Assembly (NCBI RefSeq): GCF_024172085.1 | Contig: NZ_JAMZDZ010000001.1 | Coordinates: forward strand, 5,270,001 to 5,334,000 | Reading direction: 5' to 3' | DNA from: Hamadaea flava | GTDB lineage: Bacteria > Actinomycetota > Actinomycetes > Mycobacteriales > Micromonosporaceae | Length of the DNA stretch: 64,000 nucleotides | Shown: positions 11,854 through 44,987 of the stretch, in pieces | Numbering within the stretch: the stretch's first letter is position 1 | Layout of the letters: every line of letters starts with the position of its first letter | Notes under the pieces: generated by a model | What the model was told of the DNA's origin: nothing | Databases searched by the model: none | What the model saw: the letters and a program-made list of their open reading frames with translations, nothing else | Made by a program: the position numbers and the translations under genes

Positions 11854-12828
11854 ATGGGTTTTCCGGAGATCCGGCCGCGCCGGCTGCGGACCACTCCCGC
11901 CATGCGGCGGCTGGTCAGTGAGACGCGGCTGCATCCGGCCGAGTTGATCCTGCCGATGTTCGTCAAGGAGGGCTTGACCGAACCTCGGCCGATCGCCTCG
12001 ATGCCCGGGGTCGTGCAGCACTCCCGGGAGTCCCTGCGGAAGGCCGCCGCCGAGGCGGTCGAGGCGGGCGTCGGCGGCATCATGCTGTTCGGCATCCCGC
12101 TGGCCAAGGACCCTACCGGGTCGGGTGGGATCGACCCGGGCGGCATCCTCAACGTCGCCGTCCGCGACGTCGTCTCCGAGGTCGGCTCGTCGACGGTGGT
12201 CATGAGCGACCTGTGCCTCGACGAGTTCACCTCGCACGGGCACTGCGGCGTGCTGGCGGCGGACGGATCGGTCGACAACGACGCCACCCTGGACGCGTAC
12301 GCGCAGATGGCGGTCGCGCAGGCGGCGGCCGGCGTACACGTGGTGGGGCCGTCGGGGATGATGGACGGCCAGGTCGGCGTGGTACGCCGGGCGCTGGACG
12401 AGGCCGGGTACGCCGACGTCGCGATCCTCGCGTACGCCGTCAAGTACGCGTCCGCGTTCTTCGGCCCGTTCCGCGACGCGGTGGAGTCGTCGCTGGAGGG
12501 CGATCGGCGTACCTATCAGCAGGACCCGGCGAACCTGCGGGAGTCGCTGCGCGAGGTGGAGCTGGACGTCGCCGAGGGTGCCGACATGGTGATGGTGAAG
12601 CCGGCGTTGCCCTACCTCGACGTCGTGTCCGCTGTCCGGCAGCGCGTCGACGTGCCCGTGGCGGCCTACCAGGTCAGCGGCGAGTACGCCATGGTCGAGG
12701 CGGCCGCGGCGAACGGCTGGCTGGACCGGGACCGGGTCATGCTGGAGACGCTGCACTCGATCAAACGAGCCGGTGCCTCCATGATCCTGACCTATTGGGC
12801 CGTGGACGCGGCCCGCCGCCTGCACTGA
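11854..12828 (+). CDS. hemB: Delta-aminolevulinic acid dehydratase (porphobilinogen synthase)
   Basis: A 324-residue enzyme condensing two 5-aminolevulinates to porphobilinogen. The two active-site lysines are in [14 protein letters not shown] and [12 protein letters not shown]. The metal-site loop reads [14 protein letters not shown]: the first and third Zn-ligand cysteines remain, while the middle one is Asp, a variation I recall in other actinobacteria. The ATG follows gaggagg-type purines and lies 19 bp after hemD, so it is the last gene of the rex-hem operon. It acts before hemC in the pathway. Confidence 0.95.
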
Positions 12829-12896: not shown

Positions 12897-12951
12897 GGAT
12901 CAGGGTTCTGTGTCGAATCTTGGGTCAAGATTCGACCGGGAACCCTGATCC
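12897..12951. repeat. Palindromic repeat family A, copy 1
   Basis: 26-nt arms (12897-12922 and 12926-12951) beginning GGATCAGGGTTC and ending GAACCCTGATCC, around a 3-nt loop. Only an internal 3-nt block (TGT against CGG) fails to pair. It sits between convergent hemB and a GNAT gene. Copies 2 and 3 are at 38695-38742 and 43772-43832. Confidence 0.85.
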
Positions 12952-13071: not shown

Positions 13072-14154
13072 TCAGGCGATGCCGAGGGCGCGAGCCAGGT
13101 CGGGCACGTCGGCCTCGAATTCGAGCCAGTCGCGGTCCGCGCCGAAGCCTAGCTCGGCGTTGACCTTGAGCAGCGGTTCGTTGACCGCCGCGTTCCAGGT
13201 CTGCACCTGCCGCAGCGACGGCACCGCCGAGCGGAGCTCGAACAGCATCCGGGCCTTGATCGCGCGGCCGACGCCGTAGCCCCGGTGCTCCGGCACCACC
13301 ACGGTGTCGTATTGATCGGCCCGCGTCGGACGCTGCTCGGGCACCACGACCTCGGTGAGCCCGGCGACCACGCCGGTGCTCTCGTGCACGGCCACGACGA
13401 TGTAGGGGCGCAGCCCGCGCGCGTGGAGGCAGGACAGGCTCGCCCGCAACCGGTCCGGCTCGTAGGAGCTGGGCCGCAGGTCGAGATCGCCGAGATCGAC
13501 GTCCTGCACCTCGGCCTTGGCCGTCGCGTACGCCTCGATCAGCTCGTCGGGCGGCGAGTCCGGGTAGAACCGGATGGAGTAGCCGGTGGCGACGCCGTTG
13601 GCCAGCTCGCCCAGGGCGTACCAGTCGACGGTGTCGAGGTCGAGCACGCTGCGCTGCTCGGTGAAGGCCCTGCGGAAGCCTAGGCCGGCGTAGAACTCGA
13701 CGCCTGGCGTGCCCCCCGGCACCTCGACGCCGATCGCCTGGAAGCCCTCGGAATGGGCGCGGCTGACCACCGCGTGCAGAAGTGTCCGGCCGAGTCCCCG
13801 CTTGCGCATTTCGGGGTGCACGATGCACTCGACCACGCCGATGTCGCCGAGCAGCAGAATGCTCGCGAAGCCCAGCAGCGGGACGCCCCGGGCGAGATCG
13901 CCTTCCTCTTTCTCGGCGATCCAGGTGATCTTGCGCTCGCCCGGCATGGTGACCGAGAGATATTCGCGCATCAGTACATCGCGCCACGGCGGATCATCGG
14001 GGAGGTCGACGCTCATCACGGCATTGAGCGTCTCTACCACGGTGGATATCTCGGTGGCCGTCGCGACTCGGGGATCCCACTCGCGAAGCTTCACCTGTTC
14101 AGCTTGCACGCTGCAAGGTGCCTTGGGAAGGCCCAAGTTTTCTCCACAGTGCAT
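13072..14154 (-). CDS. Two-domain GNAT acetyltransferase
   Basis: A tandem GNAT protein of about 340-360 residues. The first domain carries VECIVHPEMRKRGLGRTLLHAV (acetyl-CoA pyrophosphate loop RxxGxG). The second carries YDTVVVPEHRGYGVGRAIKARML and WNAAVNEPLLKVNAELGF. This tandem layout resembles mycothiol synthase-like and other actinobacterial GNATs. The substrate cannot be inferred. The start is uncertain: ATG at 14154 gives 20 N-terminal residues that do not look conserved, while GTG at 14094 (VKLREWDPRV) starts at the fold. Neither has a good ribosome site. It follows the lytic transglycosylase gene by 16 bp on the same strand. Confidence 0.8.
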   Translation of the reverse strand: MHCGENLGLPKAPCSVQAEQVKLREWDPRVATATEISTVVETLNAVMSVDLPDDPPWRDVLMREYLSVTMPGERKITWIAEKEEGDLARGVPLLGFASILLLGDIGVVECIVHPEMRKRGLGRTLLHAVVSRAHSEGFQAIGVEVPGGTPGVEFYAGLGFRRAFTEQRSVLDLDTVDWYALGELANGVATGYSIRFYPDSPPDELIEAYATAKAEVQDVDLGDLDLRPSSYEPDRLRASLSCLHARGLRPYIVVAVHESTGVVAGLTEVVVPEQRPTRADQYDTVVVPEHRGYGVGRAIKARMLFELRSAVPSLRQVQTWNAAVNEPLLKVNAELGFGADRDWLEFEADVPDLARALGIA

Positions 14155-19870: not shown

Positions 19871-19880
19871 CGGGCGTTTT

Positions 19881-19945
19881 GCTGCAGATCACGGTTACGC
19901 AGGCTTCCCGAGGCGGGTTTGGCCTGCGTAACCGTGATCTGCAGC
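19881..19945. terminator. 24-bp perfect inverted repeat between convergent GNAT and korB
   Basis: Arms 19881-19904 and 19922-19945 (beginning GCTGCAGATCACGGTTACGC) are perfect complements around a 17-nt loop. The position between two convergent stops supports a bidirectional terminator. It is unrelated in sequence to repeat families A and B. Confidence 0.7.
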
Positions 19946-19951
19946 TAACGG

Positions 19952-28083: not shown

Positions 28084-28261
28084 GAGTCTCAGAATGTCAT
28101 GGATGAGTAGTTCATGATGATTTTTCGCGAGATCCAGATCCGGCTTGTCCTGATCGCTGACTGCACTCCTGGCGGCTCGGCCGAGAGCCTCCCCGGCTTG
28201 CCTCGAGGAGCCTGATCAACGATCTCCCACTACTATCCACAGGGGAAATCGGGAGGACGAA

Positions 28262-37961: not shown

Positions 37962-37972
37962 GCGCGGGACAA

Positions 37973-38058
37973 CCCACGGGAGTCCGGTGCACCGGGCTGA
38001 GAGGGGGCTTGGTAGCCCCGACCGTAGAACCTGATCCGGATCATGCCGGCGCAGGGAG
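37973..38058 (+). ncRNA. TPP (thiamine pyrophosphate) riboswitch
   Basis: THI-box conserved segments are present in order: ccggtgcaccgggCTGAGAgggg (first helix and pyrimidine-sensor CUGAGA), a variable stem (gggcttggtagcccc), then GAACCTGATCCGGATCATGCC and GGCGCAGGGAGG. The final purine run gcagggagga is also the ribosome site of thiE (ATG 38066), so ligand binding probably hides the ribosome site, i.e. translational control of the thi operon. Confidence 0.95.
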
Positions 38059-38065
38059 GAGTGCA

Positions 38066-38767
38066 ATGCGGGCCACCCGTCCCATCCCTCGGCTCCACGT
38101 GGTGACCGACTCGGTCGACATCGCGCGTGCGGCCCTTTCCGGTGGCGCGCCACTGATCCAGGTCCGCGTGGAGGACTCGGTCAGCGATCGTGCCCTCTAC
38201 GACCTCGCGAGCAGGATCGCGCCGTTGTGCGCGGAGCGCGGCGCGATCTGCGTCGTGAACGACCGGCCGCACATCGCGGTCGCCCTGCGTACCGCGGCTG
38301 TCCATGTCGGAGCCGACGACCTGCCGGTGCACGCGACGCGTACGGTCCTCGGCGGCAGCGGCCTGATCGGGGCGAGTGCGCGTACTCCCGAACGCGCCCG
38401 GCAGGTCATCGCGGAAGGCGCGGACTACCTCGGCTGCGGCCAGGTCAATCCCAGCTTCACCAAGGACGTCGCGACCAACGTGATCGGCCTCGGCGGGCTG
38501 ATCGCCGTGGTCGGCGCGGCGGTGGGCGTACCGGTCATCGCGATCGGCGGGCTCACCCTGGCGGACGTCCCGTCGGTGCTCGCGGCGGGCGCGTACGGCA
38601 TCGCGGTGATCGGGGCGGTCCGCGACGCGGCCGACCCCGCGTCCGCCACCTCCGCCTTGCTCGCGGCGGTCACCGCCGATCGGCGGCAGATCAGGGATCA
38701 GGGCCGAATCACCGGTCAAGATTCGACCGGGAACCCTGATCCAGCGACTGAGGGGACCCGGCGATGA
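38066..38767 (+). CDS. thiE: Thiamine-phosphate synthase
   Basis: A 233-residue TIM-barrel enzyme joining hydroxymethylpyrimidine diphosphate and thiazole phosphate. Motifs: PLIQVRVEDSVSD, VVNDRPHIAVAL, VHVGADDLPV (phosphate and Mg binding), YLGCGQVNPSFTKD and VPVIAIGGLTLADVPSVLAAGAYGIAVI. Residues from about 210 on (RDQGRITGQDSTGNPDP...) are encoded by palindromic repeat A copy 2, so the natural C-terminus probably ended earlier. First gene after the TPP riboswitch; its stop overlaps thiO (ATGA). Confidence 0.93.
   Translation: MRATRPIPRLHVVTDSVDIARAALSGGAPLIQVRVEDSVSDRALYDLASRIAPLCAERGAICVVNDRPHIAVALRTAAVHVGADDLPVHATRTVLGGSGLIGASARTPERARQVIAEGADYLGCGQVNPSFTKDVATNVIGLGGLIAVVGAAVGVPVIAIGGLTLADVPSVLAAGAYGIAVIGAVRDAADPASATSALLAAVTADRRQIRDQGRITGQDSTGNPDPATEGTRR
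38695..38742. repeat. Palindromic repeat family A, copy 2 (inside the thiE 3' end)
   Basis: The right arm (38717-38742) is identical to that of copy 1. The left arm keeps GGATCAGGG and GAATC but has lost several bases. It lies in frame within the last codons of thiE. Confidence 0.85.
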
Positions 38768-43771: not shown

Positions 43772-43832
43772 GCTGGATCAGGGTTCTGCGTCGAATCTTG
43801 ACCCAAGATTCGACGCAGAACCCTGATCCAGC
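43772..43832. repeat. Palindromic repeat family A, copy 3 (perfect)
   Basis: Two perfectly complementary 29-nt arms (43772-43800, 43804-43832) around a 3-nt loop. The left arm starts GCTGGATCAGGGTTCTGCG and ends GTCGAATCTTG. It is the most intact of the three family A copies and lies upstream of the DinB gene. Confidence 0.92.
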
Positions 43833-43856: not shown

Positions 43857-44987
43857 TCAGCCGAGGGGGCGGGGGACGTAGCCGCCGCGTTCCTTGGCCG
43901 AACCCGACGTCGTCGCCGAGGGGGCCGGCTCGCGCGGCTCGCCCAGTGCGGAGACCCAGTTCTCGACGGCGTCGTTCGTCGGGCGGGGCTTCGTGGTGTG
44001 TTTCGCACTCGGCTTCGGCGTGGGCGCGGACGTCGTGCTCGGTGCGGACTTCGCGGTGGGCGAGGGCTTGCGCTCGCGGCGCGACAGCGGGTCGCTCTTG
44101 ACGGTGAAGTCCGCGGAGCCGGCGGGGTCCGAGGGGTCCGAGGGGTCCAGCGCGGACGACGCGAACGCTCCGGCGGCCGACGTGTCGTCCTCCGCCTCCC
44201 GCCGCGGCGGCACCGCCACGATGACGGACGCGACGAGACCGGTGAGCACCGCGCTCAGCGCCGCGAACCAGGGCAGTTTCTGGAAGTCCGAGGAGCCCGG
44301 ACCGGCGATGGCGTACGCCAGGGCCACAGTCGCCGGACCGGCCGCGCCGCTGAGGGCGACGGCGAGCCGGTGATGGCCACGCAGCCGGGCGGTCATCGCC
44401 ACGATCACCCCGAGGACGGCCGCGATCGCGGGCAGCCCGAACAGCTGCGCGTCGTCCACCGTGGCGGGGGAGAGCCCGAGCCCGGCCAGTCCGCCGAGGC
44501 GCGGCGGCTCGTCAGCCGTCTTCCCCACCCCGCCGGCGATGAGACCCCACGTGATCAAGGCGTACGCCCCGGCGCTCCAGGCGAGCGCGCGAGCGCTGAG
44601 CATGCCGAACGCGAAGACGAGCCCGGCGGCCGCGCCGATGATCAGCGCCAGCCCGGCCTGCAACGCCGGATCCCCGTTGGGAATCTGCGCATGCCGCGCG
44701 GGGAAGAGAGCGAGGGCGGTGCCCGCCGCACCGCCGATTCCGGCCGCGGCGGCGGCGCTGACGCGTACGCCGAGCCCGTAGGTGCGGGCCCCGATGCCGG
44801 TCCCCACCGTCACGGCGATGACGGCGAACCAGGCGAGGAACACGGTCTGGGCGGTCCAGGCGTCGTTGTCGGCGTACGTGCCGTCCAGGCGCAACACGTC
44901 CAGAACGGTGGCGACACCGACCTGCCCAGCTCCCATGAGCGCCGCGAAAACGAACGCGGACGTAATCGCACGACCCCAGGTCTTCAC
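43857..44987 (-). CDS. Polytopic membrane protein with Pro/Ser/Lys-rich cytoplasmic tail
   Basis: A 376-residue protein with about eight transmembrane segments (for example AITSAFVFAALMGAGQVGVATVL, AGLALIIGAAAGLVFAFGML, LFGLPAIAAVLGVIVAMTARL) and a ~110-residue hydrophilic tail containing DPSDPSDPA and many Lys/Ser/Pro. No family recognised. The GTG start has TAACGT ending 7 nt upstream (leaderless). It lies downstream of the nitrate regulator on the same strand, but nothing ties it to nitrogen metabolism. Confidence 0.75.
   Translation of the reverse strand: MKTWGRAITSAFVFAALMGAGQVGVATVLDVLRLDGTYADNDAWTAQTVFLAWFAVIAVTVGTGIGARTYGLGVRVSAAAAAGIGGAAGTALALFPARHAQIPNGDPALQAGLALIIGAAAGLVFAFGMLSARALAWSAGAYALITWGLIAGGVGKTADEPPRLGGLAGLGLSPATVDDAQLFGLPAIAAVLGVIVAMTARLRGHHRLAVALSGAAGPATVALAYAIAGPGSSDFQKLPWFAALSAVLTGLVASVIVAVPPRREAEDDTSAAGAFASSALDPSDPSDPAGSADFTVKSDPLSRRERKPSPTAKSAPSTTSAPTPKPSAKHTTKPRPTNDAVENWVSALGEPREPAPSATTSGSAKERGGYVPRPLG

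What the first reader, a model, noticed from the sequence alone, without database searches (positions are those of the whole stretch)
43772..43832. Palindromic repeat family A: three copies, one a perfect 29-bp hairpin
12897-12951, 38695-38742 and 43772-43832 share GGATCAGGGTTC...GTCGAATCTTG / CAAGATTCGAC...GAACCCTGATCC. Copy 3 is a perfect 29/3/29 hairpin, copy 1 has one internal unpaired block, copy 2 has a decayed left arm. Three copies in 64 kb suggest a genome-wide dispersed family, perhaps a REP-like element moved by a RAYT transposase, or terminator cassettes.
Basis: seen in the sequence. Interest (0 to 1): 0.52.

Follow-up and report, generated by a model that had tools for sequence, protein, structure and literature searches.

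The report
Dispersed 55-bp palindromes at gene ends
The three hairpins belong to a family of roughly a hundred or more near-identical DNA palindromes per genome, seen so far only in the bacterial genus Hamadaea and usually just past the ends of genes, where other small mobile sequences land in them; they resemble the known REP repeats but lack the enzyme thought to move those.

Summary
Copy 3 is a perfect 29/3/29 hairpin; all three copies are 55-bp members. The family is genome-wide: about 105 pattern hits per strand here and about 165-200 in each of three other Hamadaea genomes, none in 350 other genomes of the family. Two 9-mers per arm (GGATCAGGG, CGAATCTTG) are conserved.

Copies sit a median 23-30 bp past stop codons, between convergent or tandem genes and rarely between divergent ones. 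A RAYT is not supported: no Y1 transposase found in four genomes, no GTAG/CGTC tag, no shared target-site duplication. A classical terminator is not supported: T-poor downstream flank (0.80 per 10 nt; intergenic background 1.73) and no net arm covariation.

All four copies found of an IS110 element sit at one point of the palindrome, and its noncoding region carries 11 nt of that target. A second, ~39-bp element occurs in A loops and in frame inside genes. At some orthologous sites a different GATC-bearing palindrome stands where A is missing.

Best reading: a Hamadaea-specific, RAYT-less, REP-like repeat. Its mobiliser and any effect on transcripts are unknown.

The parts
43772..43832 (.). 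Family A copy 3: perfect 29/3/29 hairpin (55-bp core 43775-43829), 24 bp past the stop codon of the minus-strand gene called at 43857-44987
   Evidence: an A core is also present in the orthologous region of G002 (L231) and G003 (L234)
12897..12951 (.). Family A copy 1, between convergent called genes (plus-strand ALAD gene ending at 12828, minus-strand GNAT gene ending at 13072)
38688..38742 (.). Family A copy 2, inside the 3' end of the called thiE reading frame (38099-38767). It encodes part of a C-terminal tail beyond the TMP-TENI domain match (aa 4-174 of 222). G002 also has A here; G003 has a different, imperfect palindrome
19878..19948 (.). Palindrome of a related family (A2: CTGCAGATCACGGTTACGCAGGC...), at the place where locus L159 (a Hamadaea MAG) has an A element
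28157..28197 (-). Copy of the ~39-40-bp element B (GGAGGCTCTCGGCC variant), intergenic here; in other loci B sits in the loop of A

Best explanation
Family A is a non-autonomous, REP-like palindromic repeat of the genus Hamadaea. It spread as DNA, by a mobiliser that is not a recognisable Y1/RAYT transposase and has not been identified, and it accumulates just past stop codons because there it harms neither promoters nor coding sequence. Shown here: copy number, mostly 26-3-26 geometry with two conserved 9-mers per arm, confinement to the genus among the genomes searched, gene-end position, no Y1_Tnp hit, no net arm covariation, sharing of many tested sites among three close species but of none of 16 tested sites with the fourth, and use as a landing site by IS110 and element B. 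Inferred: that a protein (a mobiliser or a host factor) recognises the 9-mers as DNA; that the transcribed hairpin incidentally protects or bounds mRNA 3' ends, as proposed for REPs; and that the IS110 insertion is guided by its bridge RNA.
For: Copy number and genus restriction: (4 of 354 family genomes match, all of the window's genus). Named records: 103 stretches matched; the 80 listed are Hamadaea MAGs. Length: 68 of 74 full own copies are exactly 55 bp, 4 are 93 bp with an insert in the loop, 2 are 54 bp. Position: of 80 own copies 39 convergent, 27 tandem, 4 divergent, 10 in a called gene; median 30 bp to the stop codon against 81 bp to the next start. Sequence rather than pairing: Watson-Crick cells 3592 against 3608 expected when whole arms are shuffled; 953 of 1000 shuffles at or above the observed value. 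Orthologous cores: 34 pairs, mean 88.1% identity. IS110 in A: 4 of 4 copies found, with an 11-nt match to the target in its noncoding region, seen in 0.2% of 2000 shuffles. No A at 16 tested G001 sites, although G001 has about 200 hits of the family. REPs elsewhere show the same gene-end position (PMC3733652, passages) and IS110 targeting (PMC1525189, passages).
Against: No mobiliser was found, and no clean empty site with exact junctions was resolved for A. No shared target-site duplication. Sharing of 11 of 20 tested sites with G003 and 9 of 14 with G002 (exclusions given in the full report) also fits long-term retention under selection. Conservation of the 9-mers at shared sites is stronger than an idle relic should show, so selection or gene conversion must act. 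A mild link between arms exists: identical variable tetramers in 37 of 173 copies against 24.3 expected, and a small pairing excess at a few positions (for example position 24, z 3.2).
Confidence: 0.6

Rival explanations
1. A is a bidirectional transcription terminator cassette kept by selection at gene 3' ends, any strong hairpin being good enough.
For: Gene-end position. Other strong hairpins also concentrate at convergent 3' ends: 39 of 95 non-A convergent ends in own loci against 23 of 170 tandem ends, and 28 of 48 against 18 of 129 in MAG loci. At several orthologous sites A faces a different palindrome. Streptomyces terminators have few U, 3-4 in 10 nt (PMC12207403, passages).
Against: 0.80 T per 10 nt after the element in 219 flanks against 1.73 in intergenic sequence of the own loci; at least 4 T in only 3 of 219. 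The conserved flank is T on the 5' side and A on the 3' side. No net compensatory change, and position 13 is anti-paired (z -4.3). 11 of 16 orthologous sites in G001 have no hairpin and 4 only a weak one. The primary sequence is conserved beyond what pairing needs.
Confidence: 0.2
2. A is a binding site of a sequence-specific protein (for example a nucleoid or chromosome-organising factor) with four half-sites, maintained by selection.
For: Two 9-mers per arm with the same spacing recur in all four genomes while the 8-bp middle differs between lineages (TTCNNGGT or AAATCACC) (the pattern itself fixes the spacing). Arms are conserved as sequence more than as pairs.
Against: Gene-end bias rather than a clear chromosome-scale pattern: 80 copies in 9 bins 5 13 5 7 9 16 13 7 5, P 0.05. 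No sharing with G001 at 16 tested places. The loop and arms tolerate IS110 and B insertions.
Confidence: 0.12
3. A is a MITE of a DDE transposon with 26-bp terminal inverted repeats.
For: Perfect or near-perfect inverted repeats and high copy number.
Against: No boundary shows a direct repeat shared by most copies outside the conserved element: 166 copies, lengths 2-6, 8 and 9; the largest excesses over shuffled flanks are small (26 against 15.1 for 2-mers, 11 against 2.8 for 3-mers, out of thousands of offsets). A close pair of whole A copies in the list, 2.9 kb apart (7214444 and 7217356), encloses three called genes that do not read as a transposase by eye (not family-searched). The whole element is arm plus a 3-nt loop.
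Confidence: 0.05
4. A is a RAYT-mobilised REP.
For: Gene-end position and IS110 targeting are REP-like.
Against: Y1_Tnp 0 of 4 genomes at E<=0.1; no GTAG or CGTC tag in the flank consensus; 55 bp rather than 20-40 bp.
Confidence: 0.03

Closest known systems
REP elements (GTAG/CGTC-tagged repeats; PMC3733652, passages read)
   Same: High-copy palindromes, mostly between convergent or same-direction genes and close to stop codons. CGTC-type REPs also lack an associated transposase gene. REPs are IS110 targets (PMC1525189, passages).
   Different: A is 55 bp with 26-bp arms and a 3-nt loop, has no unpaired tag, and occurs in a genus where no Y1_Tnp was found. A word search of that paper's main text gave 0 for 'actinobacteria' and 0 for 'micromonospora'.
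IS110-family insertion into REPs and bridge-RNA targeting (PMC1525189 and PMC11208160, passages read)
   Same: All IS copies found sit in the palindrome at a CT core, and the noncoding 5' region carries a sequence identical to the left target.
   Different: The host repeat is a new, RAYT-less family; the guide itself was not tested.
Rickettsia palindromic elements (described in PMC10969869, passages read)
   Same: Small repeats found in frame inside protein genes, like element B.
   Different: RPEs are about 150 bp; B adds about 39 bp and also sits in hairpin loops. Family A itself is rarely inside genes.
Mycobacterial TRIT terminator motif (recalled, not read)
   Same: A repeated hairpin motif at gene ends in an actinobacterium.
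   Different: A lacks terminator sequence features and net arm covariation.

Membership tests
RAYT-associated REP | Y1 tyrosine transposase (PF01797) in the genome | tested here: not met
   0 of 4 Hamadaea genomes at E<=0.1; 8 of 14 controls rang, 6 over the cut-off (own genome). G002 is 87% and G003 97% complete
RAYT-associated REP | Unpaired GTAG or CGTC tag at the stem base | tested here: not met
   Flank consensus is TTTnnGCGCT; the GCGCT part pairs in 70-86% of 155 copies
RAYT-associated REP | High copy, mostly extragenic, near gene 3' ends | tested here: met
   (10 of 80 own copies lie in a called gene)
RAYT-associated REP | Length 20-40 bp | tested here: not met
   68 of 74 full own copies are 55 bp
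Intrinsic transcription terminator | T-rich tract after the hairpin on the sense strand | tested here: not met
   0.80 T per 10 nt in 219 flanks against 1.73 intergenic background
Intrinsic transcription terminator | Pairing maintained by compensatory changes | tested here: not met
   155 copies, whole-arm shuffle: 953 of 1000 at or above observed; small excess at a few positions, deficit at 12-13
Intrinsic transcription terminator | Transcripts end at the element | not testable with these tools
   No RNA data available
MITE | Target-site duplication | tested here: not met
   166 copies, lengths 2-6, 8, 9; symmetric offsets 0-30 and asymmetric offsets 0-24 (2-mers symmetric only)
MITE | Autonomous partner with the same ends | tested here: inconclusive
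   None recognised among exact 12-mer hits of the own genome; diverged ends not searched
Target of an IS110-family element | IS copies inserted at the same point of the repeat with a short core | tested here: met
   4 of 4 copies found: 3 with AACC^CT^GATCC, 1 with a variant left side; transposase matches PF01548 and PF02371

The most novel reading that the evidence does not exclude
Hamadaea carries an undescribed, RAYT-free class of non-autonomous palindromes marked by GATC inside the stem. Its families replace each other at the same gene-end sites and recombine arm-wise (outer A with inner A2 and the reverse), and their apices are hot spots for a ~39-bp element that also inserts in frame into protein genes. 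Together they would be spread by a mobilisation mechanism that uses no known transposase.
Probability: 0.3. Interest if true: 0.75.

Novelty: new variant of a known kind. Interest (0 to 1): 0.5.

Why it matters
It suggests that REP-like gene-end palindromes can reach 100-200 copies per genome without a recognisable RAYT, the enzyme held responsible for REP spread, and that conservation can act on arm sequence rather than on pairing. It also offers a natural nested system (palindrome, loop element, IS110 landing site) with presence/absence differences between sister species, in which the mobiliser could be sought by resequencing and pull-down.

Tried and rejected
Rfam scan of the window at gathering thresholds: only a TPP riboswitch at 37966-38074. 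RAYT: not supported. MITE with target-site duplication: not supported. Terminator by sequence features and covariation: not supported. Orientation of the asymmetric arms relative to genes: no bias in tandem contexts, 14 against 17. Chromosomal clustering: borderline, P 0.05. Plasmid and phage collections: no match for A at E<=0.01. Exact empty sites for A were looked for, but intergenic flanks often diverge too much. The strict hairpin threshold missed copies 1 and 2, so a looser one was used; in the window it gave 14 hairpins against 6, 4 and 2 in three resamples, so single weak hairpins mean little.

Limits of the counts. The MAG stretches were fetched with a pattern that fixes the spacing and I used 80 of the 103, so only the own copies speak for the fixed length. 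In some searches, 38 of 74 full own copies were picked at random, but my typed query held 24 of the 38; only those were located. In one search I drop sites 7 and 14, whose flank overlapped A, and do not count site 9 as a replacement, because own L085 carries that neighbouring hairpin too. In one search, 8 of the 81 hairpins listed as non-A are A copies that escaped the filter (hand count); without them GATC lies in the outer arm of 46 of 73. The 'A' class uses a loose pattern (5 mismatches), so its A counts are upper bounds, and convergent gaps count once from each gene; its 21 loose hits in G001 prompted the generic pattern. The output was cut, so I saw only part of those alignments. Genes come from a home-made caller, not from annotation. 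B contexts are partly biased towards A, because many loci were fetched for A. Papers: passages or search listings only; none was read whole. 'Not in print' is claimed only for Hamadaea with palindromic in the held library: 0 papers (related searches). TRIT is recalled; its source paper was not seen (search 38).

Full report
Observation. The perfect 29/3/29 hairpin at 43772-43832 is real, and the other two copies are 55-bp members. Copy 2 begins at 38688, not 38695. The window is G000:C1:5270001-5334000 of an 8.86-Mb single contig.

Family. The exact 12-mer GGATCAGGGTTC occurs 51 + 46 times in the genome, with none for the reversed pattern. One hit (region 3484845-3484899) is a lone 12-mer without a hairpin. 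In the loci examined (68 own, 80 of 103 MAG stretches and 18 loci fetched for element B) I read 173 full copies: 159 of 55 bp, 3 of 54 bp and 11 of 92-95 bp with an insert in the loop. Among the 74 full own copies, found without a spacing rule at the search stage, 68 are 55 bp; 6 further own copies matched on one arm only. On 155 copies without insert the 9-mers GGATCAGGG and CGAATCTTG are conserved, with position 9 (T 0.81, A 0.18), positions 12-13 and, less so, 14 and 23 varying; the loop is free, and the flank reads TTTnnGCGCT on the 5' side. A pattern with a free 8-bp middle, up to 3 mismatches, finds 104/105, 187/185, 165/164 and 202/199 hits (forward/reverse) in G000, G002, G003 and G001, and none in the other 350 genomes of the family. 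The stricter A pattern gives 80/79, 175/166, 160/159 and 1/1. G001 therefore carries a sister form with middle AAATCACC. Hamadaea belongs to Micromonosporaceae.

Position. With a home-made hexamer gene caller, 80 own copies fall as 39 convergent, 27 tandem, 4 divergent and 10 inside a called gene; 96 MAG copies fall as 38, 38, 2 and 9, with 9 at contig edges. The median distance to the upstream stop codon is 30 bp (own) and 23.5 bp (MAG), against 81 and 89 bp to the next start. Intergenic sequence in gaps of at least 60 bp of the same own loci is 11,750 bp convergent, 29,205 bp tandem and 22,455 bp divergent. In 8 of the in-gene copies (4 own, 4 MAG, some of them orthologs) the called gene ends at the element's own TGA. 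The same gene-end preference is reported for REPs (PMC3733652, passages).

Sequence more than pairing is conserved. On 155 copies the core has 3592 Watson-Crick cells, against 3608 expected when whole right arms are dealt out anew; 953 of 1000 shuffles reach the observed value. Position 13 is anti-paired (z -4.3) and position 12 tends the same way (z -1.8); positions -1, 11, 23 and 24 show a small pairing excess (z 2.4 to 3.2). The commonest arm combination, TCGG with CGGG (37 of 173), leaves two mismatches in the stem, yet identical tetramers are also somewhat commoner than chance (37 of 173 against 24.3 expected). So pairing is not maintained overall, but the arms are not fully independent.

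History. Of 38 own A sites picked at random from 74, I sent 24 gene ends to the other three genomes and fetched matching regions. After dropping two sites whose flank overlapped A, G003 gave 20 sites: 11 with A, 6 with another hairpin (one of them, site 9, a neighbour also present in the own genome), 1 weak, 2 none. G002 gave 14 readable sites: 9 with A, 2 with another hairpin, 3 none; 4 more were cut by contig ends. G001 gave 16: none with A, 1 hairpin, 4 weak, 11 none. The background rate of hairpins within 260 bp past non-A gene ends is 13% overall in own and MAG loci, but 39 of 95 (own) and 28 of 48 (MAG) at convergent ends, so a replacement at a convergent site is not in itself unusual. 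Over 34 orthologous pairs the cores are 88.1% identical against 84.7% for random paralogs. In 11 site pairs an A on one side faces another GATC-bearing palindrome on the other: 6 (G003 sites 2, 3, 4, 22; G002 sites 6, 13) and 5 read by eye (L159/window, window/L232, L179/L068, L187/L075, L160/L072). Eight of the 11 are of the A2 type. Two chimeras exist: L088 has outer A arms with inner A2-type arms, and L069 the reverse.

GATC signature. Of the non-A hairpins surveyed in Hamadaea loci, 46 of 73 carry GATC in the outer 15 bases of the arm (8 escaped A copies set aside by hand). In 359 kb from 20 other genomes of the family it is 1 of 12, and that one, in L340, closely resembles a Hamadaea palindrome (GATCATGAACTTATGG).

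Guests. A 1232-bp IS110-family element (PF01548 and PF02371) was found 4 times in the own genome and not in the other three at E<=1e-30. All 4 sit in an A element at the same point of the right arm, with CT on both sides; in L327 the bases left of the core differ (AGAAA for GGAACC). Its first 201 noncoding bases contain CCGGAACCCTG, identical to the A target over 11 nt; 0.2% of 2000 shuffles had such a match. This is what a left target guide of a bridge RNA should look like (PMC11208160, passages), but function was not tested. The second guest, B, has 35 hits in the own genome, 16 in G002, 22 in G003 and none in G001 at up to 3 mismatches. Of the 30 loci returned for B itself, 11 are A loops (hand count). 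Over all 38 contexts read, which are biased towards A, 13 are A loops, 17 lie inside called genes (13 sense, in two of the three frames; 4 antisense) and 8 are other intergenic sites. L104 (A with B) against L219 (A without) and L121 (a gene with B) against L064 and L141 (without) show net gains of 39 bp. In L125, B adds 13 residues to N-acetylglutamate kinase relative to solved homologues.

Mechanism. I commit to a REP-like, non-autonomous repeat that spread by an unidentified, non-Y1 mobiliser and is tolerated at gene ends. The RAYT, MITE and classical-terminator readings each fail at least one tested feature. A host-protein binding site cannot be excluded. Whether the transcribed hairpin (about -56 kcal/mol for a consensus and for window copy 3) affects mRNA ends is untested.

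Noticed in passing
window 28157-28197 (-); L098-L127, L121 1496-1536, L125 1496-1536: A ~39-40-bp dispersed element (CCGGGGAGCCTCTYGGGCGAGCCGCCAGGAGTGCRGTCRG) sits in A loops and in frame inside protein genes, for example a 13-residue insert in ArgB; present/absent between sister species.
   Followed up: partly
L031 5087-6318; L325-L328: All four copies found of an IS110-family element are inserted at the same point of an A palindrome, and its noncoding region carries 11 nt of the target.
   Followed up: yes
window 19878-19948; L075, L068, L232, L280, L290, L282, L277: A second palindrome family (CTGCAGATCACGGTTACGCAGGC and variants) occupies sites where a related species has A.
   Followed up: partly
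L088 about 4995; L069 about 7305: Chimeric palindromes with the outer arms of one family and the inner arms of another, exchanged on both arms.
   Followed up: no
L340 9538-9618 (another genus of the family): A hairpin closely resembling a Hamadaea GATC palindrome (GTTGATCATGAACTTATGG) occurs outside the genus.
   Followed up: no
window 37966-38074: TPP riboswitch just upstream of thiE, whose C-terminal tail is partly encoded by A copy 2.
   Followed up: no
L120 1447-1535: Two B elements in tandem inside one called gene with a 48-bp period, in frame.
   Followed up: no
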